From assembly GCA_900208305.1 (NCBI GenBank), contig OAPG01000013.1, positions 124,001 to 188,000 on the forward strand: a stretch of DNA of 64,000 nt. Reading direction: 5' to 3'. Position 1 is the stretch's first letter; each line of letters opens with the position of its first letter. Positions 23,900 to 54,721 of this stretch are shown piece after piece. The notes beneath the pieces are model-generated. The model did no database searches, was not told the DNA's origin, and saw nothing but the letters and a program-made list of their open reading frames with translations. The position numbers and the translations under genes were made by a program. The DNA comes from Melanopsichium pennsylvanicum (Eukaryota > Basidiomycota > Ustilaginomycetes > Ustilaginales).

Positions 23900-24079
23900 G
23901 AGATCCGGTGGGAGAGCATGTCTCGACGGATCTCAGGGAGATCTGGTGGATATTGGTGGGCTCATGGGATTTAAGGTTAGCGCAGGACCGAGAAGTTGAA
24001 TCGGACAAAATCCGGTGAAAGAGCAGGTCTCAACGGATCTTACGGAAATTCGGCGAGTGGCAGTGACTCGCCGGATATC
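23900..24079. repeat. Dyad repeats, LTR 5' cluster (C)
   Basis: Palindromic 35-bp units, each 13-bp arm, 9-bp spacer, 13-bp arm. Unit 23900-23934 has arms GAGATCCGGTGGG and CTCGACGGATCTC. Units 24007-24041 and 24045-24079 are 3 bp apart; the last has arms GAAATTCGGCGAG and CTCGCCGGATATC. A degenerate unit starts at 23938. The first pair and second pair are a diverged duplication about 107 bp apart. The same cluster occurs in all four C/F LTRs. Confidence 0.85.
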
Positions 24080-24712: not shown

Positions 24713-24825
24713 GATATCCGTCGAGAGATCGCCACTCGCGGGATTCTCTTCGATATCCGTTGAGGCCAAGCTTAACCGCCGGAATTCACTGAAATCCGGC
24801 GAGTCGCGCTTTCTCACGGGAATTC
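24713..24825. repeat. Dyad repeats, LTR 3' cluster (C)
   Basis: Three tandem units starting at 24713, 24752 and 24791 (period 39), left arms GATATCCGTCGAG, GATATCCGTTGAG and GAAATCCGGCGAG, right arms ending CGGGATTCT, CCGGAATTC and CGGGAATTC. It lies within 30 bp of the LTR end. Confidence 0.8.
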
Positions 24826-25888: not shown

Positions 25889-26005
25889 CAACAGTCTCAG
25901 TCGCCGAGCCTCCAAGCGCAGCCAGAACACAACCAGGACAATAAGGGAAGAAACATATATTTTGCCTAACTCGAGGGAGTCGCTTGCGAGCTCCCAGCCG
26001 TGGCC
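25889..26005. repeat. Element D internal repeat B1
   Basis: Second copy of the 117-bp unit, between the recombinase gene and A2. A circular intermediate joined at these repeats is the known integration substrate in this class. Confidence 0.88.
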
Positions 26006-30327: not shown

Positions 30328-31479
30328 TGTCAGGGGGCGTTGTGCCAAACTCAAGCTTCGCGCCGAGATCCGCTGAAACCGTCTGTTTTAGCGTGTTTGA
30401 GATTGAGACCTGATAAGCAGGCCGGTTCTATTGTGTTTTGCTATGAGACCTGCTGCGCGACTCTTGAGCTGACTGACCACTGTGAACACTCCGTTCAGAG
30501 GTAATGCGGCTCGTCTGTGTGTTGTAAGACCTTCACGATGCACGAGTGCTCTTGATGCAAGTGTTGGTCACCGTCAGGGACTGCTTCGGATGGTCTTGAA
30601 GCTGTCGTGATAATGAATTGGCTACGGTGGAGGTTCCGTGACCGCGGTTGAGGTTCCGCCTACAGTTGAGGTGCTGTAGTGTCAGTGATGGTGCTGACAA
30701 TCGTCGATGAAGCTTGTCTCCTTATACTGAGGAGAACACAGACACTGGATAGCTGCAATACCGTATGATTGCAGCTGCTGACGAGAACTATATACTGAGT
30801 AACTGATAACGACTTGTAAAGTAAAGACTGGGTTAATATAAAGTAGAGTGGATGAGTCCCGCTCCTCCACGACTGTAAAGACTGTGTTCTTATATACCTA
30901 TGGCCCTCCAGGGGCTCCCCTTTGTCCGCTATGACCCTGGTACACCAGAGTATCAATGGCCACCAGAGTTTCGACGTGTCCGCGAGCTTGGGCCCCGTGC
31001 TAATCAATGCCAACTGTCATCAACTATGACAACCACGAGCTTGGGCCCTGTGTTAAACAATGCTGACTGCCCTCAACTATGACAACCACGAGCTTGGGCC
31101 CTGTGTTAAACAATACCAACTGCCAGCAACCATGTCGCCCTTGAGCTTGGGCCCTGTGCTAACCAGTGCTGGCTGTCAGCAACCATGACACACACAGCGG
31201 ACGGTAGCTTGGGCCCCGTGCTAACCAGTGCTGGCTGTCAGCAACCATGACACACACAGCGGACGGTCCTACATCATGTTGCACCCTTCCATCAGGCCTC
31301 CTGTACCAGACGGAGGCCTTGTGTCATCCTTAGTGCCCTGTGTTTCCTCTGCTGGTTGATACCTGCGTCCAGCGGGCGTTGCACTGATATCGGATGAAAC
31401 CACGTGTTCTAGCAGACGTCAAACTGAAACCCGATAGAACACAGTGTTTCACCGGGTTTGAAATCCACCTCCGGTAACA
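30328..31479 (-). repeat. Element E 3' LTR (long subtype)
   Basis: TGTCAGGGG...GGTAACA. It carries an extra block at about 31308-31364 absent from the other LTR. It holds tandem repeats of 53-64 bp and dyad units near 31395-31467. Confidence 0.93.
30984..31270. repeat. Tandem 53-64-bp repeats in E LTR
   Basis: Five units, each beginning (GA)GCTTGGGCCC and containing GTGYTAAMCARTGC, the last two longer and almost identical. The same array is in the other E LTR at 37496-37780. It lies upstream of the E TATA box in the element's own direction. Confidence 0.88.
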
Positions 31480-31626
31480 CTACCCCCCTTCCAAGAACCG
31501 AGCTCCTGCGAGGTAATGAAGTCCGGCGGCGCAGAGAACTTAGCTTCTACCAGCCTTTATCCTTTGTGTACAACTCTTCTTTTGCAATGGTCTTCCTCAT
31601 CTATTCCTATATCGCCACCATACAAT

Positions 31627-33017
31627 ATGCCTCGTTCCGCCGCTGCCGCTCCAACTCGACGTTCTGCTCGCGTGGCCAGCCGTGTTGCGGTTCTTTGTTC
31701 GATGTCCATGCCTTCTGCTCGTTCGACGCCTCCTTGCCGCTGTGCCGGAACTCCAAACCTCTCGGGTGAGTGTACCCCTTCCAACGATATGGTACTGGAC
31801 CCGGCTGTGCTTGCCAACGAGCATTGTCTGACATCGGACGCGGCCGTTGGCCTGGTTTTGTTGGCGCTTAGCCCGGCGCACCGTTCGGCGCCTCTACTCA
31901 ACTTATCTGGCGAAACTCAAGCGGTCTCCCATCCAGTGGGAGAACCTTTATTTCGCTACGTCTCCCCACCGGCCTCTCCTCTCGTGGATTCTGCCGTCGA
32001 AACTACTCCTGAGCGCGATGCTCGTTGGGCCCGCAAACTGGCCCGCAGCATTACACCGTCCCCAATTTTGGACCCAGACGATGTGGTGGACGATTTCCTT
32101 CTCGGTTTCAGGCCTAGGTCGGCCTCGGTGGTGTCGGATGCGTATTTGCGCAATGCTAGGGCTAATCCAGCCTCAGCGATCTCGCCTGAACCTTCGCGGG
32201 TGACACCACCTCCTGCCCGAACCCCTACACCGCCACCTCGACAAGAGCGTTACGTGCCCAATCAGCACAATATTTTGGATTGGTGCAACACCTTGTTGCC
32301 GGTGGTACTGGTCTGTATGGTGGCACGACGATTCTGGCCTGACGAATGGGATGTACCGGCCACTTGGGAACTTCCGGCACGTATGAAACTCAACGTGCTG
32401 TCAAGACTTACCGAAGGCAGTGCCCTGTGGCCGACTTGGACTTGTTTGCCTTTTGCGCGGCTCGACATTCCGTAAGTAGTTTATTGACCTCTCATCGCTA
32501 TTGTAACCCCAACTGACTCCGCTTCCTTACTTTGATTTGTAGTTGCTTTCCTTCGACGTTTGCCGACCCCACCGCTCCACGGGGTCGTGTTTCCCGTAAG
32601 TGTGTTTGTTGTGCTGAGGTGGACCATCGCGACTGTGAGCGCGATAGTCCTTGTCACCCTTCGCACATCTATCGAGGTGACGCTCCCGCACACCTGTTGG
32701 CTCCTGGCGTTCGTGGCGTGGTGAGAGCTCACCTGATTACGCCCGACTCGATGCACGGCTTGGGCTCGATCCGGTCTTGGGATCGTACCGTCGATCCTCG
32801 CGATCGACGTTGGTTCCTTCGAGTGATGGAGAATGTGTGGTACGCCGACCGTACCATTAGTCGTAGACTGGTTATGACAGTCTACGATTTCCTTACTCGC
32901 CGAGCTGACCTCCGTTCCGAACGTGAGCCTTTTGAAAGTGTTGCGGTTGCTGGTGGTGTGCCTGAACCGATTGGCACTCGTATCCCTATCCCCCACGATC
33001 CTCCTGTGCCATCTTAA
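31627..33017 (+). CDS. Antisense accessory gene of element E
   Basis: Opposite strand to E gag-pol. Exons 31627-32471 and 32543-33017 (439 aa); donor GTAAGT, acceptor TTTGTAG, 71-nt intron. The splice falls in the proline codon just before CF-x-S-x-FAD, the same place and phase as in C and F. Conserved blocks with those: RRSAR near the N-terminus, VPN ... PVVLV ... WP, RLTEG ... WPTW, IP|CF, a CX2CX4HX2C motif, GDAPAHLL, RGVVRAH, GLG, SRR and RxPFE. The first cysteine pair is CLPF here, so one Cys of the CX2CX6C motif is replaced by Phe. The start was set at the ATG giving MPRSAAAAPTRRSAR; a longer start at 31516 is possible. Function unknown. It stays intact although the element lost its integrase. 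Confidence 0.72.
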
Positions 33018-33313
33018 TGCAACAGACTCGCCTGTATCATGTTGTAATTGCAATGTCTTGTTCCTTCTTACCATGTTTGTGTTGAAAAGCCTGTGACGTC
33101 GCCAACCGTCGCCTTCCACTTTCAGCCCCAGTGTATGAGATCCGATAGAATTACCACTTTAAGCGGGTTTCAACTGAGATTGGCTGCAGAGGGTTGTTTT
33201 ATCGGATTTCAACTGAATTCGGATAAAACAGCGCGTTTTACTGGGTCTGAGATTCAAACCTAGCTTTCGCGATGCTTTGTCCCAAGGCAATCCGGGGCGG
33301 TTTTATGGTACTT
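33018..33313. repeat. Dyad repeats between E pol and antisense gene
   Basis: Three tandem 13-9-13 units start at 33137, 33176 and 33215 (period 39): left arms GAGATCCGATAGA, GAGATTGGCTGCA, GAATTCGGATAAA; right arms TTAAGCGGGTTTC, TTTATCGGATTTC, TTTACTGGGTCTG; 4-bp gaps AACT. The rest of this stretch is the shared 3' region of the two convergent genes. Confidence 0.85.
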
Positions 33314-35325
33314 CTACGCCGTCCCCCCCTCCAATCGCTCATACTCCTGGATGAGTTGGGGGGCGTTGACCGCCTCTGCTGGTTCCCATGAAGCTGCTTC
33401 CTCGGGATACCCTTTCCACTGGACCAAGTATTCCACCTGGCCTTGTCGCCGACGTATGTCAACAATGGCTTCCACCTCGAATTCCAAGTCCTCATCATGC
33501 AATGTCGGATATGGTTGTATCGTTGAGCGTCAGTCTCTAGGCGAGTCGGCAGATGGTAATTGAAATGCTTGAGTACTCCGGCCGTCGTGAAGGCCTCAAT
33601 GAGCTTGTGGAAAGCGTGTTGGGCATCCTCTGGCAGCTCAAACTTCTTGAACCTCTCCGTCGGCTTGACCAACGAGGTGAGAGGCCTTGCAATTCGTGCA
33701 AAATGAGCAATGAACCTCCTATAGAAGTTGGCAAACCCTAGGAATCGCTGGATATCGTGTATAGAGGCTGGCATCGGCCACTCCTGAATGGTTCGTACCT
33801 TCTCGGGGTCCATTTCAATCCCTCCTGGCTTAATGATGTACCCCAGGAACTCGACCTGATCTGTATGGAAAGTGCATTTTGAGAGCTTGGCAAAGAGCCG
33901 GTTGGCTCGAAGCCTCTCCAAGACCTCCCGGACGTGATCAATGTGCTCCTCCTCATTGTTGCTGAAGATGAGGAAGTCATCCAGATATACGACAACAAAC
34001 ACGCCAATGATGTCTCTATAGATACTGTTGATCAGAGACTGGAAATGCGATGGTGCGTTGGCCAACCCGAACGGCATCACCAAGTACTCGTACAATCCGA
34101 GCTGAGTACCAAAAGCTGTTTTCCATTCATCGCCGTCTGCGATGCGAACCAGGTTATATGCAGCCTTAAGGTCCAGCTTAGTATATACCTTTGCATTACG
34201 GAGTAAGAATAGTTGCTCCTCAATGAGGGGCAGCGGCGCTCTATTCTTAATTGTGATCTCATTGAGACCACGGTAATCGACGCAGAGACGTAGGCTCCCG
34301 TCCTTCTTGGGCACAAACAGGACTGGCGAGCGTGCAGGGCTCTTCGACGGTCGAATGAATCCCTTTGCGAGGTTCTCGTCAAGGTACTTGCGCAGTTCCT
34401 CCATCTCCTTAGGACCCTTCAGATAGAGCGGGCCTTGAGGAGGTTTTGCTCCCGATTCGAGCTCTATCTTGAGGTCGTGTTCGGTCCGGTGGGGTAGCTT
34501 GTCTGCTTCGACCTCGTTAAAGACCTCGGCAAGGTCCTGGTAAGGCTCCGGTACCTGCTCCGGGGGCTTGTCCTTCTCAACTTCCATGTCAACCCCTTTG
34601 TCTGCCCCGGTAGGGACAAACCCAAAGGCTGGCAACGACGTTGCCGGAACTTCGAGAAGCATGAACCCAATGGGTCCATCTTCAACGGCAGCCCTTAGAA
34701 GCTGCTTGGCCGATACAAACTCGTGACCGTGGAGTTTGAAGTCCAGAACCGGCACCCTGTTCTGGCGGGTTTTGGTTGAAATCCGCTGAACTGACCCGTC
34801 CTGTCGGGTCTCGTTTGAAATCCGATAAAACGCGTTGTTTAATCGGGTTTTGTGTGGGGCCCCGGTTTGTGGAGTAAATTCGCAGGGTTCGGCGTTCGTT
34901 GTCATCCCAAACTCCACTCGACCTTCCTCCCAATTGATTGAGGGTCGGAGCTTACGCAGCTGATCATAGCCTATGATAAGGTCATAATCCGCCGCCTCGG
35001 CAACCGCTACTTCCACCTGTCCCAGTGGATAGTGGTCGATACTTACCTGTACAATGGCGGTATGGTCTATGCACATCTTGTGACCCGTTACGCCGTGAAT
35101 CGATCTTGTTTTTGTAGGTTTTGTGGTTATCTTGTGGTCCGAAACAAATGCTTGTGAAAGTATAGACAAGCCAGCACCGGTATCCGCGAGTATGCGAGCT
35201 CCATGGCCCTCAACGGTGCCCTTGAGTTCGAGTACCGAGGAACCCGATGTGGCTGTGAAACAGAATTGGCAATCTTGAGCAATGCATTGCGATGGCATAG
35301 GTGGTCGTAGGGCAAGACACGCCAT
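33314..35325 (-). pseudogene. Element E pol (PR-RT, deletion, chromodomain)
   Basis: The ATG at 35325 overlaps the gag stop (TGATG). Protease ADTGAGLSI, then the RT-lead ADKLPHRTEHDL, RT with CVDYRGLN and VVVYLDDFLIFS, ending after the first RNase H Asp (RLETDA at about 33550). The next codons are out of frame: a deletion of about 1.8 kb relative to C joins RNase H to the sequence just before the chromodomain. The chromodomain is readable in another frame at 33314-33502 (LEFEVEAIV ... YLVQWKGYPEEAASWEP). Both sides share bases around GCGCTC/GACGCTC, so a microhomology deletion or template switch is likely. The E pol frame runs on to 33238 as nonsense. Confidence 0.9.
34778..34851. repeat. Dyad pair inside E pol (PR-RT linker)
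   Basis: Two 13-9-13 units, 34778-34812 and 34817-34851, with a 4-bp gap. Arms GAAATCCGCTGAA/CCTGTCGGGTCTC and GAAATCCGATAAA/TTAATCGGGTTTT. They lie in coding sequence, at the same place in Pol as the pair in F (52810-52882). Confidence 0.85.
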
Positions 35326-36803
35326 CAGTGTGCTGCCCCACTCTCGTTTCCCTGCCTGTCGTCAGGATCTCCTTCGGGGTTACTCGTGCCTTTGTCGTCA
35401 TAGACTGCGGCTTCTAGGTCCAGCTGGGGCTCGCCCTCGTAATTGGCCTCCTGAGGTTCCTGCTGTATATCCTCCCTGCCTTCCTCATCTGCGATGACAA
35501 CGTTCGCTCCCACACGGGGTCCTGATGGCCTGACGACCGCATGAGTTGTCTTTTGAGGACAGTTGTTGGACCAGTGGCCTGGCTTCTTGCAGATGTAGCA
35601 AGTGTCACTCCCCACGGTTGTGGGTCCAGCTCGAGCAGGGGTGCGTGGAGCCAGGTGGGGAGGCGGCGCCCGATTGGCAATTGGTATACCCTGAGGGGTA
35701 TAGCTGCCCCTTGGAGCTTGCTGGGCTGGCTTGGGCGTGGCCTGGAGTCCTCCAACGGGTCTGTTAACGGCCATCGGTGGGCCAGATGGCATGTATGCCG
35801 GCCTGGACAACTCCGTTGGTGGAATCGAGTGCCATCGTTGGGCTTGCTGGTTTACCACCCGCTGCCGGTCGATGGCTTCAACCTCGGCGTACCACTCCCA
35901 AAGCGATGGGGGTGGGCTTCGCTCGAACTTCTCCTGCAGGCTGCGAGAGAGTCCCGATCGGAAGTAGTACTTTGCGAGCTCCTGGTCGCCGATGTTGGCT
36001 CGGCCTTCAAGGTCCCTAAACCGTTCAAGGTACCTGGTGGCCGTGCCGGGACAGTCGTCCTGCATACGCAGCTTCTGAAGCTCCGTGATGGCCTCAAGCC
36101 TCAGGTCTCGCTGTCCATATTGTTCCTTGAGTCTCTGTGTGAACATATTCCAGTCGTTGAAGAGGATGCCTTGCTGTTGGCGGTCGGCCCTTAGCTTAGA
36201 CTTCCACCATTCTCGAGCACTGCCCTCGAGGAACTGACTGGTGTAAGCGACCATCTTACCATGGTCCCGGATACCCTTCATTCTGAACCACCACTCAGCC
36301 TCGATGAAGAACATGTCCATATCCTTGAGGTCCATCTTCGGGAACGGGGTCTTGAGTTCCGTTGGCCACTTGGCCTCCTCGTCGTCTTTCGACTGCGGGG
36401 CTGACTCTCCAGGCGGCCTACTTACCACTGCTTCGGTGGCCAATCCTAAGGCCAGGGGGAGTTCCGTGGGCGCGACCTGTCGTCTAGCCCCGGTTGGGGT
36501 AGAGTAGAGCTCGTACAAGCGAGCTCTGTTGCCCTCGTTGTTGTCCGGCCGGTTTCGGGCCGTAGGCGTCGGTGTCTCCGGCTCCGGGCGGTATGATACC
36601 TCCAGGCGGACGAGCACACGTTCCACCAACGACTGGAGTCTGTCGATGCTCTGGTCCGTCCTCTTCTGTCGGGCTTCGACTTCCTCGATGTGATTCTTGA
36701 AGTCTTTCATCTTTGTCAGTAATTGACCCGTGGTGTCATAGAGCGTCTGGAACAGGGGTCGTCCCGTCTGCTCCGGAGTCCGGGGTTGGGATTCGTCTGT
36801 CAT
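35325..36803 (-). CDS. Element E Gag
   Basis: 492 aa from the ATG at 36803 (MTDESQPRTPEQ). An N-terminal coiled coil (about 35-75), a capsid domain (about 170-330: FFIEAEWWFRMKGI, EWWKSKLRADRQQQG, RLKEQYGQ, YFRSGLSRSLQEKFER) and a CCHC knuckle C-x2-C-x4-H-x4-C (CYICKKPGHWSNNC) near residue 415. The C-terminal tail is acidic. It is clearly homologous to F Gag through the capsid. The stop TGA overlaps the pol ATG as TGATG, pointing to termination-reinitiation. Confidence 0.93.
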   Translation of the reverse strand: MTDESQPRTPEQTGRPLFQTLYDTTGQLLTKMKDFKNHIEEVEARQKRTDQSIDRLQSLVERVLVRLEVSYRPEPETPTPTARNRPDNNEGNRARLYELYSTPTGARRQVAPTELPLALGLATEAVVSRPPGESAPQSKDDEEAKWPTELKTPFPKMDLKDMDMFFIEAEWWFRMKGIRDHGKMVAYTSQFLEGSAREWWKSKLRADRQQQGILFNDWNMFTQRLKEQYGQRDLRLEAITELQKLRMQDDCPGTATRYLERFRDLEGRANIGDQELAKYYFRSGLSRSLQEKFERSPPPSLWEWYAEVEAIDRQRVVNQQAQRWHSIPPTELSRPAYMPSGPPMAVNRPVGGLQATPKPAQQAPRGSYTPQGIPIANRAPPPHLAPRTPARAGPTTVGSDTCYICKKPGHWSNNCPQKTTHAVVRPSGPRVGANVVIADEEGREDIQQEPQEANYEGEPQLDLEAAVYDDKGTSNPEGDPDDRQGNESGAAH

Positions 36804-36828
36804 ATTGGCGAGGGGCACTACTTGAACG

Positions 36829-36838
36829 ATCCACTCTA
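36829..36838 (-). promoter_or_regulatory. Element E self-primer binding site
   Basis: On the minus strand TAGAGTGGAT starts one T after the LTR and is complementary to bases 37356-37365 inside the LTR, about 45 bp downstream of the TATA box. The geometry is the same as in C. Confidence 0.75.
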
Positions 36839-36839
36839 A

Positions 36840-37942
36840 TGTCAGGGGGCGTTGTGCCAAACTCAAGCTTCGCGCCGAGATCCGCTGAAACCGTCTGTTT
36901 TAGCGTGTTTGAGATTGAGACCTGATAAGCAGGCCGGTTCTATTGTGTTTCGCTATGAGACCTGCTGCGCGACTCTTGAGCTGACTGACCACTGTGAACA
37001 CTCCGTTCAGAGGTAATGCGGCTCGTCTGTGTGTTGTAAGACCTTCACGATGCACGAGTGCTCTTGATGCAAGTGTTGGTCACCGTCAGGGACTGCTTCG
37101 GATGGTCTTGAAGCTGTCGTGATAATGAATTGGCTACGGTGGAGGTTCCGTGACCGCGGTTGAGGTTCCGCCTACAGTTGAGGTGCTGTAGTGTCAGTGA
37201 TGGTGCTGACAATCGTCGATGAAGCTTGTCTCCTTATACTGAGGAGAACACAGACACTGGATAGCTGCAATACCGTATGATTGCAGCTGCTGACGAGAAC
37301 TATATACTGAGTAACTGATAACGACTTGTAAAGTAAAGACTGGGTTAATATAAAGTAGAGTGGATGAGTCCCGCTCCTCCACGACTGTAAAGACTGTGTT
37401 CTTATATACCTATGGCCCTCCAGGGGCTCCCCTTTGTCCGCTATGACCCTGGTACACCAGAGTATCAATGGCCACCAGAGTTTCGACGTGTCCGCGAGCT
37501 TGGGCCCCGTGCTAATCAATGCCAACTGTCATCAACTATGACAACCACGAGCTTGGGCCCTGTGTTAAACAATGCTGACTGCCCTCAACTATGACAACCA
37601 CGAGCTTGGGCCCTGTGTTAAACAATACCAACTGCCAGCAACCATGTCGCCCTTGAGCTTGGGCCCTGTGCTAACCAGTGCTGGCTGTCAGCAACCATGA
37701 CACACACAGCGGACGGTAGCTTGGGCCCCGTGCTAACCAGTGCTGGCTGTCAGCAACCATGACACACACAGCGGACGGTCCTACATCATGTTGCACCCTT
37801 CCATCAGGCCTCCTGTACCAGACGGAGGCTGTCAGAGGGCGTTGCACTGATATCGGATGAAACCACGTGTTCTAGCGGATGTCAACCTGAAACCCGATAG
37901 AACACAGTGTTTCACCGGGTTTGAAATCCACCTCCGGTAACA
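36840..37942 (-). repeat. Element E 5' LTR (short subtype)
   Basis: 1103 bp. On the minus strand, TATA GGTATATAAG is at 37401-37410 and the self-primer match is at 37356-37365. It lacks the 49 bp net present in the other LTR and ends directly against C pol. Confidence 0.93.
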
Positions 37943-39504
37943 AGCCTCCCACTGCCGTCGAAATCCCAGCCCCGTACTACCCCCTCAAGGATGTATTCGA
38001 CGAGGTCGAAGCGGACAAGCTTCCCCCTCACACAAAGCACGACTTGCACATCGAGCTACTACCCAGTTCGACGCCACCTCAAGGTCCGCTATATCTCAAG
38101 GGACCTAAGGAGATGGCCGAGCTGAGGAAGTACCTCGAAGAGAATCTCGAGAAGGGATTCATTCGGCCCTCAAAGAGCCCGGCGCGATCCCCCGTCCTCT
38201 TTGTGCCTAAGAAGGACGGCGGCCTGCGACTCTGCGTAGACTACCGCGGTCTCAACGAGGTCACGGTTAAGAACCGAGCACCACTGCCCTTAATCGAGGA
38301 GCAGCTGTTCCTCCTACGAAAAGCGAAGATCTATACCAAGCTGGACCTAAAGGCAGCTTACAACTTGGTTAGGATTGCCGACGGGGACGAATGGAAAACC
38401 GCGTTTGGAACTCAACTCGGACTGTATGAGTATCTGGTCATGCCATTCGGATTGGCAAATGCGCCCGCGCACTTCCAATCGCTCATCAACACCATCTACC
38501 GCGACATCATTGGCGTATACGTGGTAGTATACCTTGACGACTTCCTGATCTTCAGCGACAACGAGAAGGAACACATCGAGCACGTCAGGACGGTGCTCAG
38601 TAGGCTCAAGGTATGGCGGTTATTCGCCAAACTCTCGAAGTGCGTGTTCCATACCGATACTGTTGAGTTCCTCGGTTACATCATCAAGCCGTCAGGTATC
38701 GAGATGGACCCCGACAAGATCAGGACTATCAAGGAATGGCCGATGCCGGAGTCTATACACGACATCCAACGCTTCCTCGGGTTCGCCAACTTCTATCGCA
38801 GATTCATCTCTCACTTTGCACGTATAGCGAGACCGCTCACTTCCCCCGTTAAGCCCACAGAGCGATTCAAGAAGTTCGACCTCCCTGACGATGCCCGCGC
38901 TGCTTTCCACAAGCTGGTGGAAATGTTCACCACCGCTGGGGTTCTCAAACACTTCGATTACCATCGTCCTACCCGGTTGGAAACGGACGCAAGCGACTTT
39001 GCTCTCGCTGGAGTACTTAAACAAGAGCACGACGGACGATGGCACCCAATAGCATTCTACTCGCGCAAGATGGCATCGGCGGAGAAGAACTACGAGATCC
39101 ATGACAAGGAACTCCTCGCTGTTGTCGTCTGTCTCAACCACTGGCGGCACATGCTTGCAGGACTACCTAGTCAGCTCATTATTCTCACTGATCACGAGGC
39201 GCTCAAATACTTCAAGTCTCAGCGGAAGATCACAGGTCGGCAGGCTCGATGGTCAGTGTTACTCGCTGACTTCGACTTTGTACTCCAATACAGACCGGGA
39301 GATAAAGCGGGAGAGCCAGATGCGTTGACACGACGAAGTGATATGCAGCCGACCGCAGAAGAAGACCTACACAACGTCCGACAGCTGTTACCGGCACGAG
39401 TATTTGCCGAGGATTTCGAAAACCGCCCGGATTTCACCGAAATTCGCCAAGAAAGAGCTACTCGCCGAATCTCAAATAAATATGCTAAAACCAACAATGT
39501 CTGA
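37943..39504 (+). pseudogene. Element C pol, RT-RNase H part
   Basis: Starts without an initiator at the E junction, in the PR-RT linker (PPTAVEIPAPYYPLKD). RT is complete: CVDYRGLN, KLDLKAAYNL, VVVYLDDFLIFS. RNase H is complete: ETDASDFALAGVLKQ, HDKELLAVV, LTDHEALKYF, PDALTRR. The protease and the pol start are gone. It stops at 39502-39504, where the IN ORF begins. Apart from truncation it is nearly identical to F. Confidence 0.92.
39439..39473. repeat. Dyad unit inside C pol (RNase H-IN linker)
   Basis: GAAATTCGCCAAG, 9-bp spacer, CTCGCCGAATCTC, preceded after a 3-bp gap by a right half-arm CCGGATTTC. It is coding in the RT-RNase H ORF just before its stop. The same unit is in F. Confidence 0.82.
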
Positions 39505-41005: not shown

Positions 41006-41435
41006 GCTGAAGAGGATCTTGCGAGCCGCGATGCATGCCATCACAGGAGAGTAAGATGGTGAGAAGCTCGACAAGGACGAAGCTCGACAAGGACGATGTC
41101 GAGCGGCGAAGGTAGAAGGTTGCAGGAATCGAGATCCGGACAATGACCCCGACTCAGGGAATTTCCACAAAATCCGCCGAGTACTGCAGAATTCAACGGA
41201 TCTCAGAGAAAAAATTAAAAAAAAAAAAAAAGAGAAATTGCGGGGTAACGAGAACCTAAAAGTCACGAAATTCGCCGAGGAATGCATGATCCAAAGGATC
41301 TCAGGCCTTAATGGGCGACGCAAGTCGACAGGTATATTTCTCACACCGGAAGTCACACAATCAAGCTCACACTGGGATTGGATGGGTAACGAGGCACTGT
41401 CATTGCAACAAGTCAACACAGCCAGCGGGCACAGA
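41006..41435. repeat. Element C 3' spacer with dyad repeats and A tract
   Basis: Between the convergent IN and antisense genes. Dyad units at 41131-41165 and 41169-41204 (3-bp gap) and 41267-41302, with arms GAGATCCGGACAA/CTCAGGGAATTTC, AAAATCCGCCGAG/TTCAACGGATCTC and GAAATTCGCCGAG/TCCAAAGGATCTC. An A-tract runs 41215-41231. No gene. The same region in F is 49138-49566. Confidence 0.8.
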
Positions 41436-42688: not shown

Positions 42689-43699
42689 TGTCACGGGAGT
42701 GGGTCCCAAGGAAGAGGTCTGCGCAGACCAGAGATGTTGAATCGGCTGAGATCCGGTGGGAGAGCATGTCTCGACGGATCTCAGGGAGATCTGGTGGATA
42801 TTGGTGGGCTCATGGGATTTAAGGTTAGCGCAGGACCGAGAAGTTGAATCGGACGAAATCCGGTGAAAGAGCAGGTCTCAACGGATCTCACGGAAATTCG
42901 GCGAGTGGCAGTGACTCGCCGGATATCGAAGGTATCGATGGCGAGGGGGGTATCTGCCACGGCGGCGACCAACGCCACGCCGGAACGACACGTGGGCCAA
43001 TCGACGCCCAGGGAGCAACGGAGAGGGAGCACGCGGGCGTGCTCGGAAGCACCCTGCCGAAGGACTAGGGGGCAGTCTTATCGGGCGGGGGTCCAAGCTC
43101 GACGCACGCAGGTCGTACAGTACCGATGGACCTCGCACACGATACATATATATAAATACTCTGTTCCCCGCTATCGGATGAGCGGAAGCTCATCCACTCT
43201 ATCTTATATCTCAGTCACACATAGTTATCAGTACGTCGTACTTACCATACTCTTCACACGTCGCACATCGCAATACCATTTATTGCGATCCATATAGTCT
43301 GTGTCCCCGTCGGTGAACGGAGAACAACGTATAGACGTCGTCGACACCACAATCGACGCTGTAGCACCTCCACTACAGGCGGAACCTCAACCGCGGGCCT
43401 GGCACCACAACCAGTCCCTCATAACTCCACCGACAACGACGGCTGAGGTCTAACCCAGCCATCGGCAGTATCCCGTCGACGTCGTGACACTCGCGTTGAC
43501 CGAATACCCCGTCCGAGCTTGCCGCGTTACCTCTGTACGGAGTGTCACCAGCGGTCAGCCGATATCCGTCGAGAGATCGCCACTCGCGGGATTCTCTTCG
43601 ATATCCGTTGAGGCCAAGCTTAACCGCCGGAATTCACTGAAATCCGGCGAGTCGCGCTTTCTCACGGGAATTCGGATCTCTGGCACGCGACCGCTGACA
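42689..43699 (+). repeat. Element C 3' LTR
   Basis: 1011 bp, six transitions from 23841-24851. Preceded by the polypurine tract GAAGGGGGGGTAG (42676-42688) and followed by TSD TGACC. Confidence 0.96.
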
Positions 43700-46864: not shown

Positions 46865-47875
46865 TGTCAGCGGTCGCGTGCCAGAGATCCGAATTCCCGT
46901 GAGAAAGCGCGACTCGCCGGATTTCAGTGAATTCCGGCGGTTAAGCTTGGCCTCAACGGATATCGAAGAGAATCCCGCGAGTGGCGATCTCTCGACGGAT
47001 ATCGGCTGACCGCTGGTGACACTCCGTACAGAGGTAACGCGGCAAGCTCGGACGGGGTATTCGGTCAACGCGAGTGTCACGACGTCGACGGGATACTGCC
47101 GATGGCTGGGTTAGACCTCAGCCGTCGTTGTCGGTGGAGTTATGAGGGACTGGTTGTGGTGCCAGGCCCGCGGTTGAGGTTCCGCCTGTAGTGGAGGTGC
47201 TACAGCGTCGATTGTGGTGTCGACGACGTCTATACGTTGTTCTCCGTTCACCGACGGGGACACAGACTATATGGATCGCAATAAATGGTATTGCGATGTG
47301 CGACGTGTGAAGAGTATGGTAAGTACGACGTACTGATAACTATGTGTGACTGAGATATAAGATAGAGTGGATGAGCTTCCGCTCATCCGATAGCGGGGAA
47401 CAGAGTATTTATATATATGTATCGTGTGCGAGGTCCATCGGTACTGTACGACCTGCGTGCGTCGAGCTTGGACCCCCGCCCGATAAGACTGCCCCCTAGT
47501 CCTTCGGCAGGGTGCTTCCGAGCACGCCCGCGTGCTCCCTCTCCGTTGCTCCCTGGGCGTCGATTGGCCCACGTGTCGTTCCGGCGTGGCGTTGGTCGCC
47601 GCCGTGGCAGATACCCCCCTCGCCATCGATACCTTCGATATCCGGCGAGTCACTGCCACTCGCCGAATTTCCGTGAGATCCGTTGAGACCTGCTCTTTCA
47701 CCGGATTTCGTCCGATTCAACTTCTCGGTCCTGCGCTAACCTTAAATCCCATGAGCCCACCAATATCCACCAGATCTCCCTGAGATCCGTCGAGACATGC
47801 TCTCCCACCGGATCTCAGCCGATTCAACATCTCTGGTCTGCGCAGACCTCTTCCTTGGGACCCACTCCCGTGACA
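46865..47875 (-). repeat. Element F 3' LTR
   Basis: 1011 bp; the adjacent PPT reads GAAGGGGGGGTAG on the minus strand (47876-47888). Confidence 0.96.
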
Positions 47876-47977
47876 CTACCCCCCCTTCGAGAGCCGAGCT
47901 CCGTTGAGGCTTAAATAGGGTCGGCGGGTGTTCCCCCGACTTGTTCTTCCACCAACAGCACCTTCCAAACCATCAAG

Positions 47978-49137
47978 ATGTCGACCCACTCGAATAGTGC
48001 CCCTTCCGCTGCGTCATCGCGACCAGCGTCGACACGACTGCCTGCCCTCAGGGCAGAAGAGCCTGTGCGCCGTAGCGCCAGGCTTCGCAACCGAAATCCT
48101 GCCACTTGGGCAGTGACAACACCTTTGGCTGTCGGCCTCGAGGCCACAGCTTCGTCGTCCCCTGCTGCCGGCGAGCAGCCCATCGAAATTGTTGCTGCCG
48201 AGCAGCTTGTCGCGTTGCGGTCAACGCCGCAACCACTGGAGCCGTTGTTCCTGGGGAGCGAGGCCGCAGGGGAGGAGGAAGAGCGGCTGGAGGCAATGGA
48301 GGTGGAGGAGTCGGTTGTAGGGAGGGTGAGCAAGGCCGGGGAGGACCCTGTCGCTCCGCTCGTTGGGCCTCATGTGCCCAACTACCTCGAGATCGCGCTG
48401 TGGGCGGAGCTATTTATCGCTCCGGTGTTGCTGGTGTTCGTGGCGTGCGAGGCCTGGCCCCCTACTTGGGTGGTATCGGAGGGTTCCGTGGCGGCTGGTT
48501 GCCTCCATCGGCTGGTCCTCCTTCGACTGACCGAGGGCTGCATGCCTTGGCCGAGTTGGCAATGCGCCCGCTGCGCCAAGCTTGGCATACCGTGAGTACT
48601 GCTGCCCCCTTCTCCGTTCGATGCTCGCTGCCCATTGATACTCGCTGCTGACTCTGGTTCTCCCCTTTTTTGTGTCCCAGTTGTTTCGCGTCGGCCTTTG
48701 CTGACGTACTTTCTGCCGGTGGCAAGGGCAGAACTCCGCGCGCTTGTGTGCACTGCCATCTTGGCGGCCACAAGAAGTGCGTGCGAACTGCAAGGGCGTT
48801 GCCGACGACGGTATACGCTGGCGACGCTCCTCCTCGCCACCTGCATCGAGGCGGGCGTGGCGTCGAGCGAGCTCACGTCACGGGAGCGGGAGGTCGAGGA
48901 TTGGGAGAGGTACGGAGGCTCGACCGTGACTCGAACGGTGTGGAGGACCTGAACTGGGCGTACGCGATGCGTATCATTTGGTCCGCTTCGCCTCGCAGTC
49001 GGCGAGTCCCGGTGCTGACGATGATCGAGGAGTATCTCGATCGTCAGCGGCGAGTGCGGTCTATGCGCTCGCCTTTCGAGGATCTTGAGCCTTCTTCGGT
49101 GCCTGGGCCTTCGTCAGCCCCCGAGTCTGCGGAATAG
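47978..49137 (+). CDS. Antisense accessory gene of element F
   Basis: Exons 47978-48591 and 48681-49137 (356 aa); donor GTGAGT, acceptor GTCCCAG, 89-nt intron. A TATA-like TTAAATAG at 47911-47918 lies 60 bp before the ATG, between PPT and gene, so it has its own promoter inside the element. The protein matches C's except for a three-residue insertion (STPQP for SP) and scattered changes: RRSARLRNR, acidic stretch, hydrophobic helix, CX2CX6C, 20 residues, CX2CX7C, basic C-terminus. It is convergent with the IN ORF (430 bp apart). A nuclear DNA- or RNA-binding role is inferred only from the cysteine pattern and basic regions. Confidence 0.78.
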
Positions 49138-49566
49138 TCTGTGCCCGCTGGCTGTGTTGACTTGTTGCAATGACAGTGCCTCGTTACCCATCCAATCCCA
49201 GTGTGAGCTTGATTGTGTGACTTCCGGTGTGAGAAATATACCTGTCGACTTGCGTCGCCCATTAAGGCCTGAGATCCTTTGGATCATGCATTCCTCGGCA
49301 AATTTCGTGACTTTTAGGTTCTCGTTACCCCGCAATTTCTCTTTTTTTTTTTTTTAATTTTTTCTCTGAGATCCGTTGAATTCTGCAGTACTCGGCGGAT
49401 TTCGTGGAAATTCCCTGAGTTGGGGTCATTGTCCGGATCTCGATTCCTGCAACCTTCTACCTTCGCCGCTCGACATCGTCCTTGTCGAGCTTCGTCCTTG
49501 TCGAGCTTCTCACCATCTTACTCTCCTGTGATGGCATGCATCGCGGCTCGCAAGATCCTCTTCAGC
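49138..49566. repeat. Element F 3' spacer with dyad repeats
   Basis: Equivalent of 41006-41435 in C: the same dyad units (for example AAAATCCGCCGAG on the minus strand, written as CTCGGCGGATTTC at about 49393-49405) and a T tract at about 49343-49356. No gene. Confidence 0.78.
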
Positions 49567-51075
49567 TTAGTGTCTCCGTCCCCCCGCCGATTCCTCATAC
49601 TCCCGGATGAGGTCTGGGCAGTTGAGACAGTCTGTCGGTTCCCACAAGGCTGCCTCCTTGGGGTAGCCCCTCCATTGGACTTTGTATTGCACTTGCCTAC
49701 CCTGTTTTTGCTTTCCTACAATGGCCTCTACCTCGAATTCTAGAGTGTCGTCCGGTAGGGGCGGCGTGACTTTGAGTGTGGAGCGCTGTGGGAGTGAGCT
49801 CGCCCTTTGAGGTTCGAGCATCGAGACATGGAAAACGTCGTGTACGCGCAAACTTGCTGGGAGTTGGAGCCGGTATGCTCTTCTGCCGATTCGTTTGAGG
49901 ATGGGGAACGGGCCTGCTAACCTTGTGTCGAGTTTGGGACTGGGTCGAGCTGTCTTCCAGTTCTTTCGGTTGACGTAGACCATGTCTCCAACTTTGAACT
50001 CGATGTCCTTCCGTTTGCGGTTATATTGCTCAACGGTTCGGCTTTGAGCGTACCTGATTTGCTCCTGTAGATACTCCGTAAATTCTTTTCTTCGGGTGGC
50101 AAACTCTTTTCTCTTGGGGTCGAGCACACCGACTTGTTCTGGGAGATTGGGGTGTGACTTTGGATTCCACCCGTAGCAGGCAAAGAAAGGCGAGACCCCT
50201 ATGCTGCTGTGGACCGTGTTGTTGTAAACGAACCCGGCCATTGGCAGCCAGGTTACCCAGTTGTCCTGCTCGTAGTTGCAGTACATACGGAGGTACTGCT
50301 CGACAACTTGATTGACCCGCTCCGTTTGCCCGTCCGTCTGTGGGTGGTAGGCTGTGCTGAGCGAGTGGTGGATGACCAGCTTGTCGGTGAACTCTTTCCA
50401 TGCCGCCGAGACGAATTGTCGGCCGCGGTCTGAGACAATGTGCTCTGGTACCCCGAAACGGGACATAACCTGGTCTTTGAGCATCTTTGCCGTCTGCTCC
50501 GACGTTATTGTCTTGTACGTCGGAGTTAAGATGGCATATTTGGTCAACCGGTCGACCACTACGAAGATCGAGTCATACCCCTCCGATTTAGGTAACCCTT
50601 CAATAAAATCCATCGAGATGGAATTCCAGGGTCTTGACGGCGTCGACAGCGGCTGCAAAAGGCCATATGGTCGGTGTCGCGGTGCTTTATATCGAGCGCA
50701 CACTGGGCAGCTTGCTACATAGTCCGCAACCCATGCCGCCATATTTGGCCACCAATAATGCCGCCTTGTGAGCTTGAGGGTGGCGTCTCGACCTGCGTGG
50801 CCAGCGGTAGCGCCGTCGTGGCATTGGGACATTACCATGTACCTCAGGTGCTCTACCGAGAGCGAGCGATCTTTTGCCTCGGCGGCACTCCGAGTGTTGC
50901 GTTGACCTTTCTTACCTGGTAATGTGACTCGCGGCACCACTAGCCGACCGTCGCGATACCACAGGCCATGTCTAACTTCGAAAGGTTGCTTCTGATGAAG
51001 CTCTGCGAGCTCGGCATCGAGCGGCTGGAAAGTCTTTACGAGTTGGACCAGCCCTCCCTCCGCAATATCAGACAT
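49567..51075 (-). CDS. Element F integrase-chromodomain ORF
   Basis: 502 aa starting at the ATG 51075-51073, which precedes the RT-RNase H stop (51070-51068) by two bases: ATGTCTGA. H2C2 zinc-binding region about residues 85-135, DDE core about 155-300 with MDF, SDRGRQF and TDGQTERVNQ, chromodomain about 440-495 (VQWRGYPKEAALWEP; the usual Ser of SWEP is Leu here). The frame is +1 relative to the upstream ORF. It inserts cDNA at chromatin recognised by the chromodomain. Confidence 0.92.
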   Translation of the reverse strand: MSDIAEGGLVQLVKTFQPLDAELAELHQKQPFEVRHGLWYRDGRLVVPRVTLPGKKGQRNTRSAAEAKDRSLSVEHLRYMVMSQCHDGATAGHAGRDATLKLTRRHYWWPNMAAWVADYVASCPVCARYKAPRHRPYGLLQPLSTPSRPWNSISMDFIEGLPKSEGYDSIFVVVDRLTKYAILTPTYKTITSEQTAKMLKDQVMSRFGVPEHIVSDRGRQFVSAAWKEFTDKLVIHHSLSTAYHPQTDGQTERVNQVVEQYLRMYCNYEQDNWVTWLPMAGFVYNNTVHSSIGVSPFFACYGWNPKSHPNLPEQVGVLDPKRKEFATRRKEFTEYLQEQIRYAQSRTVEQYNRKRKDIEFKVGDMVYVNRKNWKTARPSPKLDTRLAGPFPILKRIGRRAYRLQLPASLRVHDVFHVSMLEPQRASSLPQRSTLKVTPPLPDDTLEFEVEAIVGKQKQGRQVQYKVQWRGYPKEAALWEPTDCLNCPDLIREYEESAGGRRH

Positions 51076-53314
51076 CGTTGGTTTTAGCATATTTATTTGA
51101 GATTCGGCGAGTAGCTCTTTCTTGGCGAATTTCGGTGAAATCCGGGCGGTTTTCGAAATCCTCGGCAAATACTCGTGCCGGTAACAGCTGTCGGACGTTG
51201 TGTAGGTCTTCTTCTGCGGTCGGCTGCATATCACTTCGTCGTGTCAACGCATCTGGCTCTCCCGCTTTATCTCCCGGTCTGTATTGGAGTACAAAGTCGA
51301 AGTCAGCGAGTAACACTGACCATCGAGCCTGCCGACCTGTGATCTTCCGCTGAGACTTGAAGTATTTGAGCGCCTCGTGATCAGTGAGAATAATGAGCTG
51401 ACTAGGTAGTCCTGCAAGCATGTGCCGCCAGTGGTTGAGACAGACGACAACAGCGAGGAGTTCCTTGTCATGGATCTTGTAGTTCTTCTCCGCCGATGCC
51501 ATCTTGCGCGAGTAGAATGCTATTGGGTGCCATCGTCCGTCGTGCTCTTGTTTAAGTACTCCAGCGAGAGCAAAGTCGCTTGCGTCCGTTTCCAACCGGG
51601 TAGGACGATGGTAATCGAAGTGTTTGAGAACCCCAGCGGTGGTGAACATTTCCACCAGCTTGTGGAAAGCAGCGCGGGCATCGTCAGGGAGGTCGAACTT
51701 CTTGAATCGCTCTGTGGGCTTAACGGGGGAAGTGAGCGGTCTCGCTATACGTGCAAAGTGAGAGATGAATCTGCGATAGAAGTTGGCGAACCCGAGGAAG
51801 CGTTGGATGTCGTGTATAGACTCCGGCATCGGCCATTCCTTGATAGTCCTGATCTTGTCGGGGTCCATCTCGATACCTGACGGCTTGATGATGTAACCGA
51901 GGAACTCAACAGTATCGGTATGGAACACGCACTTCGAGAGTTTGGCGAATAACCGCCATACCTTGAGCCTACTGAGCACCGTCCTGACGTGCTCGATGTG
52001 TTCCTTCTCGTTGTCGCTGAAGATCAGGAAGTCGTCAAGGTATACTACCACGTATACGCCAATGATGTCGCGGTAGATGGTGTTGATGAGCGATTGGAAG
52101 TGCGCGGGCGCATTTGCCAATCCGAATGGCATGACCAGATACTCATACAGTCCGAGTTGAGTTCCAAACGCGGTTTTCCATTCGTCCCCGTCGGCAATCC
52201 TAACCAAGTTGTAAGCTGCCTTTAGGTCCAGCTTGGTATAGATCTTCGCTTTTCGTAGGAGGAACAGCTGCTCCTCGATTAAGGGCAGTGGTGCTCGGTT
52301 CTTAACCGTGACCTCGTTGAGACCGCGGTAGTCTACGCAGAGTCGCAGGCCGCCGTCCTTCTTAGGCACAAAGAGGACGGGGGATCGCGCCGGGCTCTTT
52401 GAGGGCCGAATGAATCCCTTCTCGAGATTCTCTTCAAGGTACTTCCTCAGCTCGGCCATCTCCTTAGGTCCCTTGAGATATAGCGGACCTTGAGGTGGCG
52501 TCGAACTGGGTAGTAGCTCGATGTGCAAGTCGTGCTTCGTGTGAGGGGGAAGCTTGTCCGCTTCGACCTCGTCGAATACATCCTTGAGGGGGTAGTACGG
52601 GGCTGGGATTTCGACGGCAGTGGGAGGCTCTTCTAGTGTCGTTTCCATCTCTATGCCTTTGTCGCCTCCCGTGGGGACAAAGCCAAACGACGGGAGCGAC
52701 GTTGGGGGAGCGCTGATTAGCATGACCCCTATGGGGCCATCCCGTAGTGCCGCCTGAACGAGCTCGTTGGCGTCGACGAACTCGTAGCCATGTACTACTA
52801 AGTTTGCTCGAGATTCGGCAGATCGGCCGGTCTCGGCGGATTTCGGTGAAATCCCTTGAACGACCGCGTCTGACCGGATCTCGTTGGTTTTTCCGAAATC
52901 GAGCTGTCCAGTATCCCAATGGACCCTTGGCTGTAGGCGTTGTAATTCATCGTACCCCAGGATGAAATTGTAGTCGCTAGCGTCAGCGACGGCGACCTTG
53001 AGCATCCCTAGGTGTTGTCCTCCTATGACTACGTCAACGTCAGCAGCGCTCGTGATCGTGAGGGAATGTCCGGTCACTCCGTGTACAGTTCTGTTTTTTA
53101 TGGGTTTTGTGGTTATCGAGTACTTGCGAACAAACGGAGCTGAAACTATAGACAATGCAGCGCCGGTGTCGGCGAGAATGCTAGCAGGATGGTGGTTGAC
53201 CGTACCTGCTAGCTCGAGTACTGAGGCACCGGAAGCTGCAGAGAAACATAATGAACAATCTTGACATATACAAGGTGATGGCGAAGGCGGTCTTAGAGCA
53301 ATGCATGCCATCAT
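51068..53314 (-). CDS. Element F protease-RT-RNase H
   Basis: 748 aa. The ATG overlaps the gag stop as ATGA. A short Cys-rich N-terminus (CICQDCSLCF), protease motif ADTGAALSIV near residue 48, PR-RT linker with two dyad units (52810-52882), RT about residues 275-470 with CVDYRGLN and VVVYLDDFLIFS, RNase H about 560-690 with ETDASDFA, HDKELLAVV, LTDHEALKY and PDALTRR. Catalytic residues are all present. It ends in a linker that encodes another dyad unit, then stops where IN starts. Confidence 0.94.
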   Translation of the reverse strand: MMACIALRPPSPSPCICQDCSLCFSAASGASVLELAGTVNHHPASILADTGAALSIVSAPFVRKYSITTKPIKNRTVHGVTGHSLTITSAADVDVVIGGQHLGMLKVAVADASDYNFILGYDELQRLQPRVHWDTGQLDFGKTNEIRSDAVVQGISPKSAETGRSAESRANLVVHGYEFVDANELVQAALRDGPIGVMLISAPPTSLPSFGFVPTGGDKGIEMETTLEEPPTAVEIPAPYYPLKDVFDEVEADKLPPHTKHDLHIELLPSSTPPQGPLYLKGPKEMAELRKYLEENLEKGFIRPSKSPARSPVLFVPKKDGGLRLCVDYRGLNEVTVKNRAPLPLIEEQLFLLRKAKIYTKLDLKAAYNLVRIADGDEWKTAFGTQLGLYEYLVMPFGLANAPAHFQSLINTIYRDIIGVYVVVYLDDFLIFSDNEKEHIEHVRTVLSRLKVWRLFAKLSKCVFHTDTVEFLGYIIKPSGIEMDPDKIRTIKEWPMPESIHDIQRFLGFANFYRRFISHFARIARPLTSPVKPTERFKKFDLPDDARAAFHKLVEMFTTAGVLKHFDYHRPTRLETDASDFALAGVLKQEHDGRWHPIAFYSRKMASAEKNYKIHDKELLAVVVCLNHWRHMLAGLPSQLIILTDHEALKYFKSQRKITGRQARWSVLLADFDFVLQYRPGDKAGEPDALTRRSDMQPTAEEDLHNVRQLLPARVFAEDFENRPDFTEIRQERATRRISNKYAKTNDV
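52810..52882. repeat. Dyad pair inside F pol (PR-RT linker)
   Basis: Units 52810-52844 and 52848-52882, both exactly 13-9-13, 3-bp gap GGT. Arms GAGATTCGGCAGA/CTCGGCGGATTTC and GAAATCCCTTGAA/CTGACCGGATCTC. They are coding on the minus strand. Confidence 0.85.
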
Positions 53315-54681: not shown

Positions 54682-54721
54682 CTTGGTGAACTTGGGGCGT
54701 CGCTTGTACGATCCACTCTAA

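What the first reader, a model, noticed from the sequence alone, without database searches (positions are those of the whole stretch)
23900..24079. Dispersed palindromes of fixed geometry (13-9-13, period 38-39) that keep their dyad while the sequence changes between families
About ten units per element lie in the LTRs, inside pol (PR-RT and RNase H-IN linkers) and between pol and antisense gene. C/F units read like GARATCCGNYGAG-N9-CTCNRCGGATYTC with 3-bp gaps; E units like GAAATCCGATAAA-N9-TTWATCGGGTTTY with 4-bp gaps, at the homologous places. Arms changed together, so symmetry is selected. Adjacent arms also form CGGATYTC-N3/4-GARATCCG. This looks like a dimer binding site array, or an RNA hairpin code, that even invades coding sequence. 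I know of no name for it.
Basis: seen in the sequence. Interest (0 to 1): 0.9.

Follow-up and report, generated by a model that had tools for sequence, protein, structure and literature searches.

The report
Palindromic binding-site arrays in fungal retrotransposons
Two related families of jumping genes in a smut fungus carry repeated, two-armed DNA signposts of fixed spacing in their ends and even inside their protein-coding parts; they look like docking sites for a DNA-binding protein, possibly one that the jumping genes themselves make.

Summary
The units are real. The genome is, by protein and contig-length matches, the smut Melanopsichium pennsylvanicum. Two related chromovirus families (C/F; E with its longer form E2) and a decayed third (E3) carry 13-9-13 dyads in short arrays, period 38-40, at corresponding places: LTR start, LTR end, PR-RT linker, RNaseH-IN linker, after pol. 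Genome-wide motif counts are 497 against 11 (F half-site) and 208 against 0 (E dyad), mostly copies made by transposition.

The two arms of a unit are no more alike than arms of different units, so arm-by-arm compensation is not shown. What differs between families is a half-site consensus shared by the arrays. That favours DNA half-sites over RNA hairpins. In the F PR-RT linker adjacent units lie 38 bp apart and are read in different frames.

Best reading: arrays of inverted half-sites for an element-specific DNA-binding protein. The prime candidate is the antisense-gene product (Zn2Cys6-like cysteine spacing, dN/dS 0.22-0.32). A VANC-like regulatory or anti-silencing role would fit. Binding is untested, gene-less E2 copies keep the arrays, and the evidence for selection on arms is moderate. 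New variant of a known kind.

The parts
23900..24079 (.). Element C, 5' LTR, array near the LTR start: four dyad units (23900-23934, 23938-23973, 24007-24041, 24045-24079)
24713..24825 (.). Element C, 5' LTR, array near the LTR end: three units, period 39
39439..39473 (.). Element C, unit in the RNaseH-IN linker (coding)
41131..41204 (.). Element C, post-pol array, two units (one with spacer 10)
   Evidence: end placed by the inverted repeat I1 against F
42748..42927 (.). Element C, 3' LTR, array near the LTR start
43561..43673 (.). Element C, 3' LTR, array near the LTR end
46865..55732 (-). Element F, complete chromovirus by its ends (TG..CA, 5-bp target duplication AGGAG), about 1.01-kb LTRs
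   Evidence: domains
55494..55673 (.). F 5' LTR array (four units); the same array in the 3' LTR is 47637-47816
54748..54860 (.). F 5' LTR end array (three units); the same array in the 3' LTR is 46891-47003
52810..52882 (.). F PR-RT linker, two units 38 bp apart, read in two different codon frames
51099..51133 (.). F RNaseH-IN linker unit
49368..49441 (.). F post-pol array, two units (one with spacer 10)
47978..48592 (+). F antisense gene, exon 1 (two Cys near its end; the third lies across the splice)
   Evidence: spliced models of this and other copies P0127, P0129, P0132, P0134; dN/dS 0.32
48681..49137 (+). F antisense gene, exon 2 (CVHCHLGGHKKC)
   Evidence: dN/dS 0.22
30328..37942 (-). 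Element E, related family, internally deleted (RT to RNaseH start, then the IN C-terminal end); ends approximate
   Evidence: no TG..CA pair with target duplication was found at these ends
37849..37923 (.). E 5' LTR start array, two units, gap 5; in the 3' LTR 31386-31460
36877..36951 (.). E 5' LTR end array, two units, gap 5; in the 3' LTR 30365-30439
34778..34851 (.). E PR-RT linker, two units found by the scan, a decayed third beside them, period 39, one codon frame
33137..33249 (.). E post-pol array, three units, gap 4; the first overlaps the last bases of the pol frame (ends 33238)
31627..32475 (+). E antisense gene, exon 1 open frame (splice site not placed)
32517..33017 (+). E antisense gene, exon 2 open frame (37-40% identical to F; splice site not placed)

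Best explanation
The units are inverted pairs of a 13-15 bp DNA half-site, set in arrays of one to four at five places of the element. They bind a sequence-specific protein as a dimer or larger oligomer. The protein is specific to these elements, and the most likely candidate is the product of the antisense gene between pol and the 3' LTR. Bound near the LTR start the protein could act both on the main promoter (5' LTR copy) and on the antisense gene's own promoter (3' LTR copy); bound in the linkers it would mark the rest of the element, as VANC proteins do on VANDAL transposons. Shown: geometry, genome-wide enrichment, corresponding placement in two families, lack of arm covariation, one coding array repeated across reading frames, purifying selection on the antisense gene. 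Inferred: protein binding (about 0.75), antisense product as the binder (about 0.4), regulatory or anti-silencing effect (about 0.25).
For: Fixed geometry of half-sites found singly. Enrichment: 497 against 11, 208 against 0. All 98 matches to the strict F dyad have spacer 9 although 0-24 was allowed (control 0), and all 8 back-to-back places have gap 3 (control 0); both sets are copies of few units. In F arms are 71% alike within and 68% between arrays while spacers are 36% and 33% alike (arms were chosen by motif, so this is biased upward). Family-specific half-site letters: position 13 is G in 17 of 24 F arms against 2 of 18 E arms, p = 0.00014. Between diverged copies (two pairs compared) arms differ less than spacers plus gaps: 40 of 208 against 31 of 89, p = 0.005. 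Arms of one unit do not covary. The two F PR-RT units lie in frames 0 and 2. The antisense gene has dN/dS 0.22 and 0.32 among 25 of 30 copies. Five of 5 full-length spliced F models looked at (P0127, P0129, P0132, P0134, P0135) have C-x2-C-x6-C-x(17-21)-C-x2-C-x7-C across the exon junction; both halves are present in 28 of 30 F loci and, with all cysteines, in 3 of 7 E-type loci (L032-L034). The '59%' family copy L065 has neither motif units nor a match to the gene.
Against: E2 copies without the gene keep the arrays: 3 of 3 such copies inspected (L064, L068, L069) lack the same stretch that holds the gene in E (about 1294-2654 of E) and keep the post-pol and LTR units. Only 5 of 29 RT copies 79-86% identical to F have an E-type gene close by in the right orientation (counted by eye), so the gene would have to act in trans. 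All families with arrays form one group by RT identity, so gene and array may co-occur by one descent. The antisense protein evolves no faster than gag (37% against 39% identity between E and F). Arms are no more conserved than the surrounding sequence between E and L069 (0.308 against 0.289), and between L064 and L067 arms against the rest of the LTR give p = 0.09. Within F non-CpG diversity is 0.0082 in arms, 0.0092 in spacers, 0.0164 in the rest of the LTR. In 4 of 7 E-type loci the cysteine pattern is incomplete or was not found, the window's own E copy among them. Pfam Zn_clus is below its cut-off (at most 8.6 bits against 21), and the structure model is uninformative (mean pLDDT 32.8).
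Confidence: 0.42

Rival explanations
1. A host DNA-binding protein (transcription factor, insulator or heterochromatin/centromere factor) binds the half-sites; the element has collected sites for it, as Drosophila gypsy did for Su(Hw) (recalled).
For: E2 copies without the antisense gene keep the arrays. One array sits in the upstream part of the LTR, where regulatory sites are expected.
Against: Exact half-sites occur 497 times against about 11 by chance and full dyads 98 and 208 times against 0. I did not map every match, but the listed F dyads are near-identical copies of one LTR unit, so a host factor would have few or no host targets of this kind. The half-site differs between families.
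Confidence: 0.25
2. Old tandem-repeat (minisatellite) remains without function; they spread within the ancestral element and persist because linkers and LTR ends tolerate inserts.
For: Unit gain or loss by 39 bp is visible (E against L069 LTR array). In E the units keep a left-right direction (position 5: left C 7 of 9, right T 7 of 9; p = 0.057), as expected of head-to-tail copies. The places are domain linkers and LTR ends. Evidence for constraint on arms within F is weak. The Ustilago hordei linkers seen lack an insert of this length.
Against: Arms stay alike between arrays while spacers do not, arms diverge less than spacers and gaps (p = 0.005), and units within an array are hardly more alike than units in different arrays, against recent neutral copying.
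Confidence: 0.2
3. RNA hairpins in the element transcript (packaging, translation or dicer signals).
For: Dyads with 6-11 of 13 bases paired and a 9- or 10-base loop recur along the transcript. Mismatches that are A.C on the sense strand would be G.U in an antisense RNA (51 against 27, p = 0.009).
Against: A unit's own arms pair no better than re-paired arms in F and E, also when sense or antisense G.U pairs are allowed; E3 is slightly above but within chance (p 0.2-0.3). No Rfam match at gathering score.
Confidence: 0.07
4. Sites of a tyrosine recombinase (anatomy like loxP or FRT, 13-8-13, recalled).
For: 35-bp dyads with 13-bp arms; a tyrosine-recombinase element is nested nearby (26099-27181, Phage_integrase 26.9 bits, just under its cut-off of 27.1).
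Against: No recombinase domain in the E and F open frames scanned; spacers are poorly conserved between units, unlike recombination sites that must pair (recalled); many sites within one element would delete it.
Confidence: 0.03

Closest known systems
VANC / VANDAL anti-silencing system of Arabidopsis (Hosaka et al. 2017, PMC5735166, passages read; Sasaki et al. 2023, PMC10398659, abstract and outline read)
   Same: An accessory protein encoded by the transposon; short motifs repeated at high density in the element and rare elsewhere; motif units that come and go and diverge together between related families.
   Different: VANDALs are Mutator-like DNA transposons of plants (recalled); their motifs are short, mainly non-coding and arrayed in one orientation. 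Here the elements are fungal LTR retrotransposons, the sites are long inverted pairs of fixed geometry, and some lie in coding linkers. Binding and loss of methylation are shown there, nothing of the kind is shown here.
Drosophila gypsy insulator, an array of Su(Hw) sites (recalled, no paper read)
   Same: A Ty3/gypsy element with an array of sites for a zinc-finger protein.
   Different: One array in the 5' UTR and a host protein; here there are five arrays along the element and family-specific sites.
Tnt1 BII boxes (PMC3316501, two passages read: boxes bind defence-induced factors)
   Same: Protein-binding boxes in the LTR of a retrotransposon.
   Different: As far as I know confined to the LTR and bound by host factors; no coding units and no antisense gene (recalled).
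Fungal Zn(2)-Cys(6) regulators and their CGG..CCG inverted sites (recalled)
   Same: Cysteine spacing of the antisense protein; half-sites contain CCG/CGG.
   Different: No Pfam Zn_clus match above cut-off; the half-site is 13-15 bp, far longer than a CGG triplet.

Membership tests
VANC/VANDAL-type anti-silencing system | Motif repeated in the element and rare elsewhere in the genome | tested here: met
   497 against 11 and 208 against 0 genome-wide; not every match was mapped to an element
VANC/VANDAL-type anti-silencing system | Motif set differs between related families while arrays persist | tested here: met
   Half-site positions 5, 10 and 13 differ between F and E
VANC/VANDAL-type anti-silencing system | Protein encoded by the transposon, under selection | tested here: met
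   dN/dS 0.22 and 0.32; but 3 of 3 gene-less E2 copies inspected keep the arrays
VANC/VANDAL-type anti-silencing system | Protein homologous to VANC | not tested
   No VANC sequence was compared; protein searches returned only Melanopsichium proteins (6 of 6 and 28 of 28)
VANC/VANDAL-type anti-silencing system | Protein binds the motif and removes silent marks | not testable with these tools
   Needs binding and methylation data
Zn(2)-Cys(6) binuclear cluster proteins | C-x2-C-x6-C-x(n)-C-x2-C-x6-8-C spacing (recalled definition) | tested here: met
   F: 5 of 5 spliced models, n = 20 in P0134; E: both halves complete in 3 of 7 loci (L032-L034), Phe for the second Cys in the window's own copy, no first half found in L035 and L036, nothing in decayed L037
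Zn(2)-Cys(6) binuclear cluster proteins | Pfam PF00172 match above cut-off | tested here: not met
   8.6 bits or less against 21
Structured RNA hairpins | Compensating changes between the two arms of a unit | tested here: not met
   Own-arm identity not above re-paired arms in F and E; E3 7.50 against 7.24, p = 0.30
Structured RNA hairpins | Match to a described RNA family | tested here: not met
   0 Rfam matches at gathering score
loxP/FRT-type recombination sites | Cognate tyrosine recombinase in the element | tested here: not met
   No such domain in the E or F open frames scanned
Chromoviruses (Ty3/gypsy) | gag, PR, RT, RNaseH, IN with chromodomain, LTRs with TG..CA and target duplication | tested here: met
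   F:

The most novel reading that the evidence does not exclude
A fungal LTR retrotransposon carries its own sequence-specific chromatin-control system: an antisense-encoded six-cysteine protein that binds inverted half-site arrays spread through LTRs and through pol coding sequence (in F, about 1.6-2 kb apart between the LTR end and the next LTR), counters host silencing of the whole element, co-evolves with its sites, and also serves copies that have lost the gene.
Probability: 0.2. Interest if true: 0.85.

Novelty: new variant of a known kind. Interest (0 to 1): 0.6.

Why it matters
If protein binding is shown, this would be a transposon-encoded binding-site system in a retrotransposon, with sites kept inside protein-coding sequence. 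It would allow a direct test of how a DNA-binding protein and a long dispersed site co-evolve, because two families with different sites live in one genome. It could also offer a handle on how retrotransposons persist in smut genomes.

Tried and rejected
Protein-level repeat: rejected for the F PR-RT linker, where adjacent units are read in different frames; in E the units share a frame. Recombinase sites: no recombinase in the E and F frames scanned. Tremellalean origin, my first guess in the notes: replaced by Melanopsichium. Structure of the antisense protein: model useless, so no fold search was run. Relatives in viral contigs: none for pol; 15 contigs matched the dyad pattern and were not examined further. 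PDB, NCBIfam and Pfam searches with the antisense protein: nothing significant (weakest mentions C1_1 at E 0.053 and Zn_clus at E 2.7). Back-translation test for palindromes in linker peptides of other species: no power, since the F and E positive controls also failed. First alignment of F copies was invalid because minus-strand loci were not turned; redone. Five of 30 copies that aligned badly or partly were dropped (L003, L005, L006, L009, L014). In one search one pair was first aligned in both orientations; only the right one is used. Literature listings: 14 papers, 10, 14 with 12 listed, 5, 5, 1, 13 with 8 listed; titles and abstract starts were seen, plus passages of PMC5735166, PMC9603552 and PMC3316501 and the abstract and outline of PMC10398659. 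In those listings I saw no title or abstract start about such palindromes in smut retrotransposons; this is not a proof of absence.

Full report
WHAT IS THERE. The window lies in a 21.1-Mb genome of 61 contigs. Proteins of the antisense gene match only Melanopsichium pennsylvanicum entries (6 of 6 and 28 of 28), and the contig lengths given for some (923001, 312315, 964126) equal those of G000 contigs C7, C23 and C6, so I take the organism to be this smut fungus (order Ustilaginales). A nest of Ty3/gypsy elements fills about 16.5-60 kb. Element F (46865-55732, minus strand) has TG..CA ends, a 5-bp target duplication, and gag, PR, RT, RNaseH, IN and chromodomain matches. Element C is the same family, split by insertions. 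Element E (about 30328-37942) is a related family with an internal deletion; its longer form is called E2 here (L064). By best local match F and E2 share 88% of RT, 80% of RNaseH, 69% of IN, 56% of PR and 39% of gag residues.

THE UNITS. The finding's coordinates hold four units of the C LTR, one of them weak. In F one LTR plus the inside carries 12 distinct units in five arrays that begin at 60, 873, 2851, 4600 and 6292 of the sense strand; E2 has 10 in five arrays at 21, 1055, 3155, 4956 and 6585; E has 9 in four. The places correspond: LTR start, LTR end, PR-RT linker, RNaseH-IN linker (missing in deleted E), after pol. Half-sites found singly, without asking for pairs, favour fixed distances: facing arms 9 or 10 apart, back-to-back arms 3 (F) or 4-5 (E2). 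Counts exceed shuffles clearly, though the motif was derived from these units. Genome-wide controls do not depend on that choice of region: 497 half-sites against 11, 98 F dyads against 0, 208 E dyads against 0. Most of these are evidently copies spread by transposition, so the independent evidence is the set of distinct units, not the hundreds of copies. The more distant '59%' family (one copy, L065) and three other stretches of elements in the window show none with the same scan. A motif-free dyad count is a weaker witness: 8 against 1.17 in F, but also 4 against 1.33 in L065.

SYMMETRY. If pairing within a unit were selected, own arms should match better than arms re-paired at random within the family. 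They do not: F 8.50 against 8.96, E 7.67 against 8.26, E3 7.50 against 7.24 (units with more than 6 motif mismatches and the second LTR left out). At positions 3 and 9 own arms agree in only 2 of 12 F units each. The symmetry thus comes from two copies of one half-site. The half-site itself differs between families: position 13 is G in 17 of 24 F arms and 2 of 18 E arms, position 10 is C in 12 of 24 and 1 of 18, position 5 is T in 24 of 24 and 9 of 18. In E the half-site seems to run two bases further, into the spacer ends (66% alike between arrays, centre 29%).

DNA, RNA OR PROTEIN. In F the two PR-RT units are 38 bp apart and begin in codon frames 0 and 2, so they encode unrelated peptides; in E the period is 39 and the frame is kept. 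RNA pairing is not favoured: sense-strand mismatches are A.C 51 times and G.U 27 times (p = 0.009), which would suit only an antisense RNA, and the covariation test gives no support for either strand. DNA recognition is the simplest reading.

SELECTION OR DRIFT. For selection: arms are nearly as alike between arrays (0.68) as within (0.71) in F, while spacers are at 0.33-0.36 (arms were picked by motif). In the two pairs of diverged copies compared, arms differ at 40 of 208 sites and spacers plus gaps at 31 of 89 (p = 0.005). Against: arms differ as much as the surrounding sequence in E against L069 (0.308, 0.289); arms against the rest of the LTR in L064 and L067 give p = 0.09; and among 25 F copies non-CpG diversity is low in arms and spacers alike (0.0082, 0.0092; rest of LTR 0.0164). 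Units can be gained or lost whole: one 39-bp step in the LTR array between E and L069.

THE ANTISENSE GENE. It lies between pol and the 3' LTR, in two exons, and begins beyond the 3' LTR array, with a TTAAATA box near 47911. Exon 2 has 33 nearly full-length F-type matches and 6-7 E-type ones. It looks like a real gene: dN/dS 0.22 (exon 2) and 0.32 (exon 1), against 0.27 for IN, in 25 of 30 copies. Cysteines spaced as in Zn2Cys6 clusters are present in 5 of 5 spliced F models, in two halves in 28 of 30 F loci, and complete in 3 of 7 E-type loci, but Pfam does not call the domain. E and F proteins are 37-40% identical, like gag. Many E2 copies appear to lack the gene (5 of 29 related RT copies have one near), and 3 of 3 inspected without it keep arrays. 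So the gene is not needed in cis; a partner could act in trans, or be a host protein.

MECHANISM. I think it most likely that the arrays are docking sites for an element-specific dimeric or oligomeric DNA-binding protein, the antisense product being the first candidate, with a role in control of LTR activity or escape from silencing. The nearest known system is VANC/VANDAL, where a transposon-encoded protein binds motif arrays that form tandem repeats and diverge together between related elements (PMC5735166, passages; PMC10398659, abstract). It may work like that system; it is not shown to be one.

RELATIVES. Among the 120 best pol relatives, the Ustilago hordei linkers printed are mostly short, P0008, P0051 and P0066 have longer linkers of other sequence, and one unnamed metagenome protein (P0009) has a 13-residue periodic insert there. 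A back-translation test could not tell whether that DNA is palindromic.

Corrected on re-reading: the E cysteine pattern, the count of gene-bearing E/E2 copies (5 of 29), the motif-free control in L065, and the CpG ratios.

Noticed in passing
window 47978-49137 and copies L001-L030: The antisense gene is about three times more divergent between F copies than the flanking IN (synonymous differences 0.17-0.18 against 0.054), which suggests exchange of gene versions between copies or old retained versions.
   Followed up: partly
F copies, LTR and coding: CpG sites are more variable than other sites: about 4 times in the rest of the LTR, 7 times in IN, 2 times in the antisense exon 2. In one search, 12 of the 13 interrupted antisense matches have TGA stops only, as expected of C-to-T change at CpG.
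   Followed up: partly
window 30328-37942; C4, C12, C1:2575906: E is an internally deleted form (RT then IN end) and four loci share the same 707-residue frame ending at the same RT position, so it was probably mobilised by proteins of E2.
   Followed up: partly
L064, L068, L069: Three gene-less E2 copies share the same junction (E positions about 1294 to 2654 missing), so loss or absence of the gene looks like a single event that then spread.
   Followed up: partly
window 18271-18305; L065 3172-3206: A near-perfect single dyad (12 of 13 pairs, spacer 9) of unrelated sequence sits between gag and protease frames of the other chromovirus family; perhaps a recoding stem.
   Followed up: no
window 25966-29406: A nested element with reverse transcriptase and a tyrosine-recombinase-like frame (DIRS/Ngaro-like, recalled) and a 33-bp tandem repeat at 28871-29224.
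   Followed up: no
window 30983-31190 and 37495-37702: The E LTR holds a separate 53-bp tandem repeat array.
   Followed up: no
P0009 (unnamed metagenome contig of 6000 bases): The PR-RT linker of this pol relative has a 13-residue period (IGEPSRLGDFGQQ / IGESTPLDDFRIS) at the place of the arrays.
   Followed up: partly
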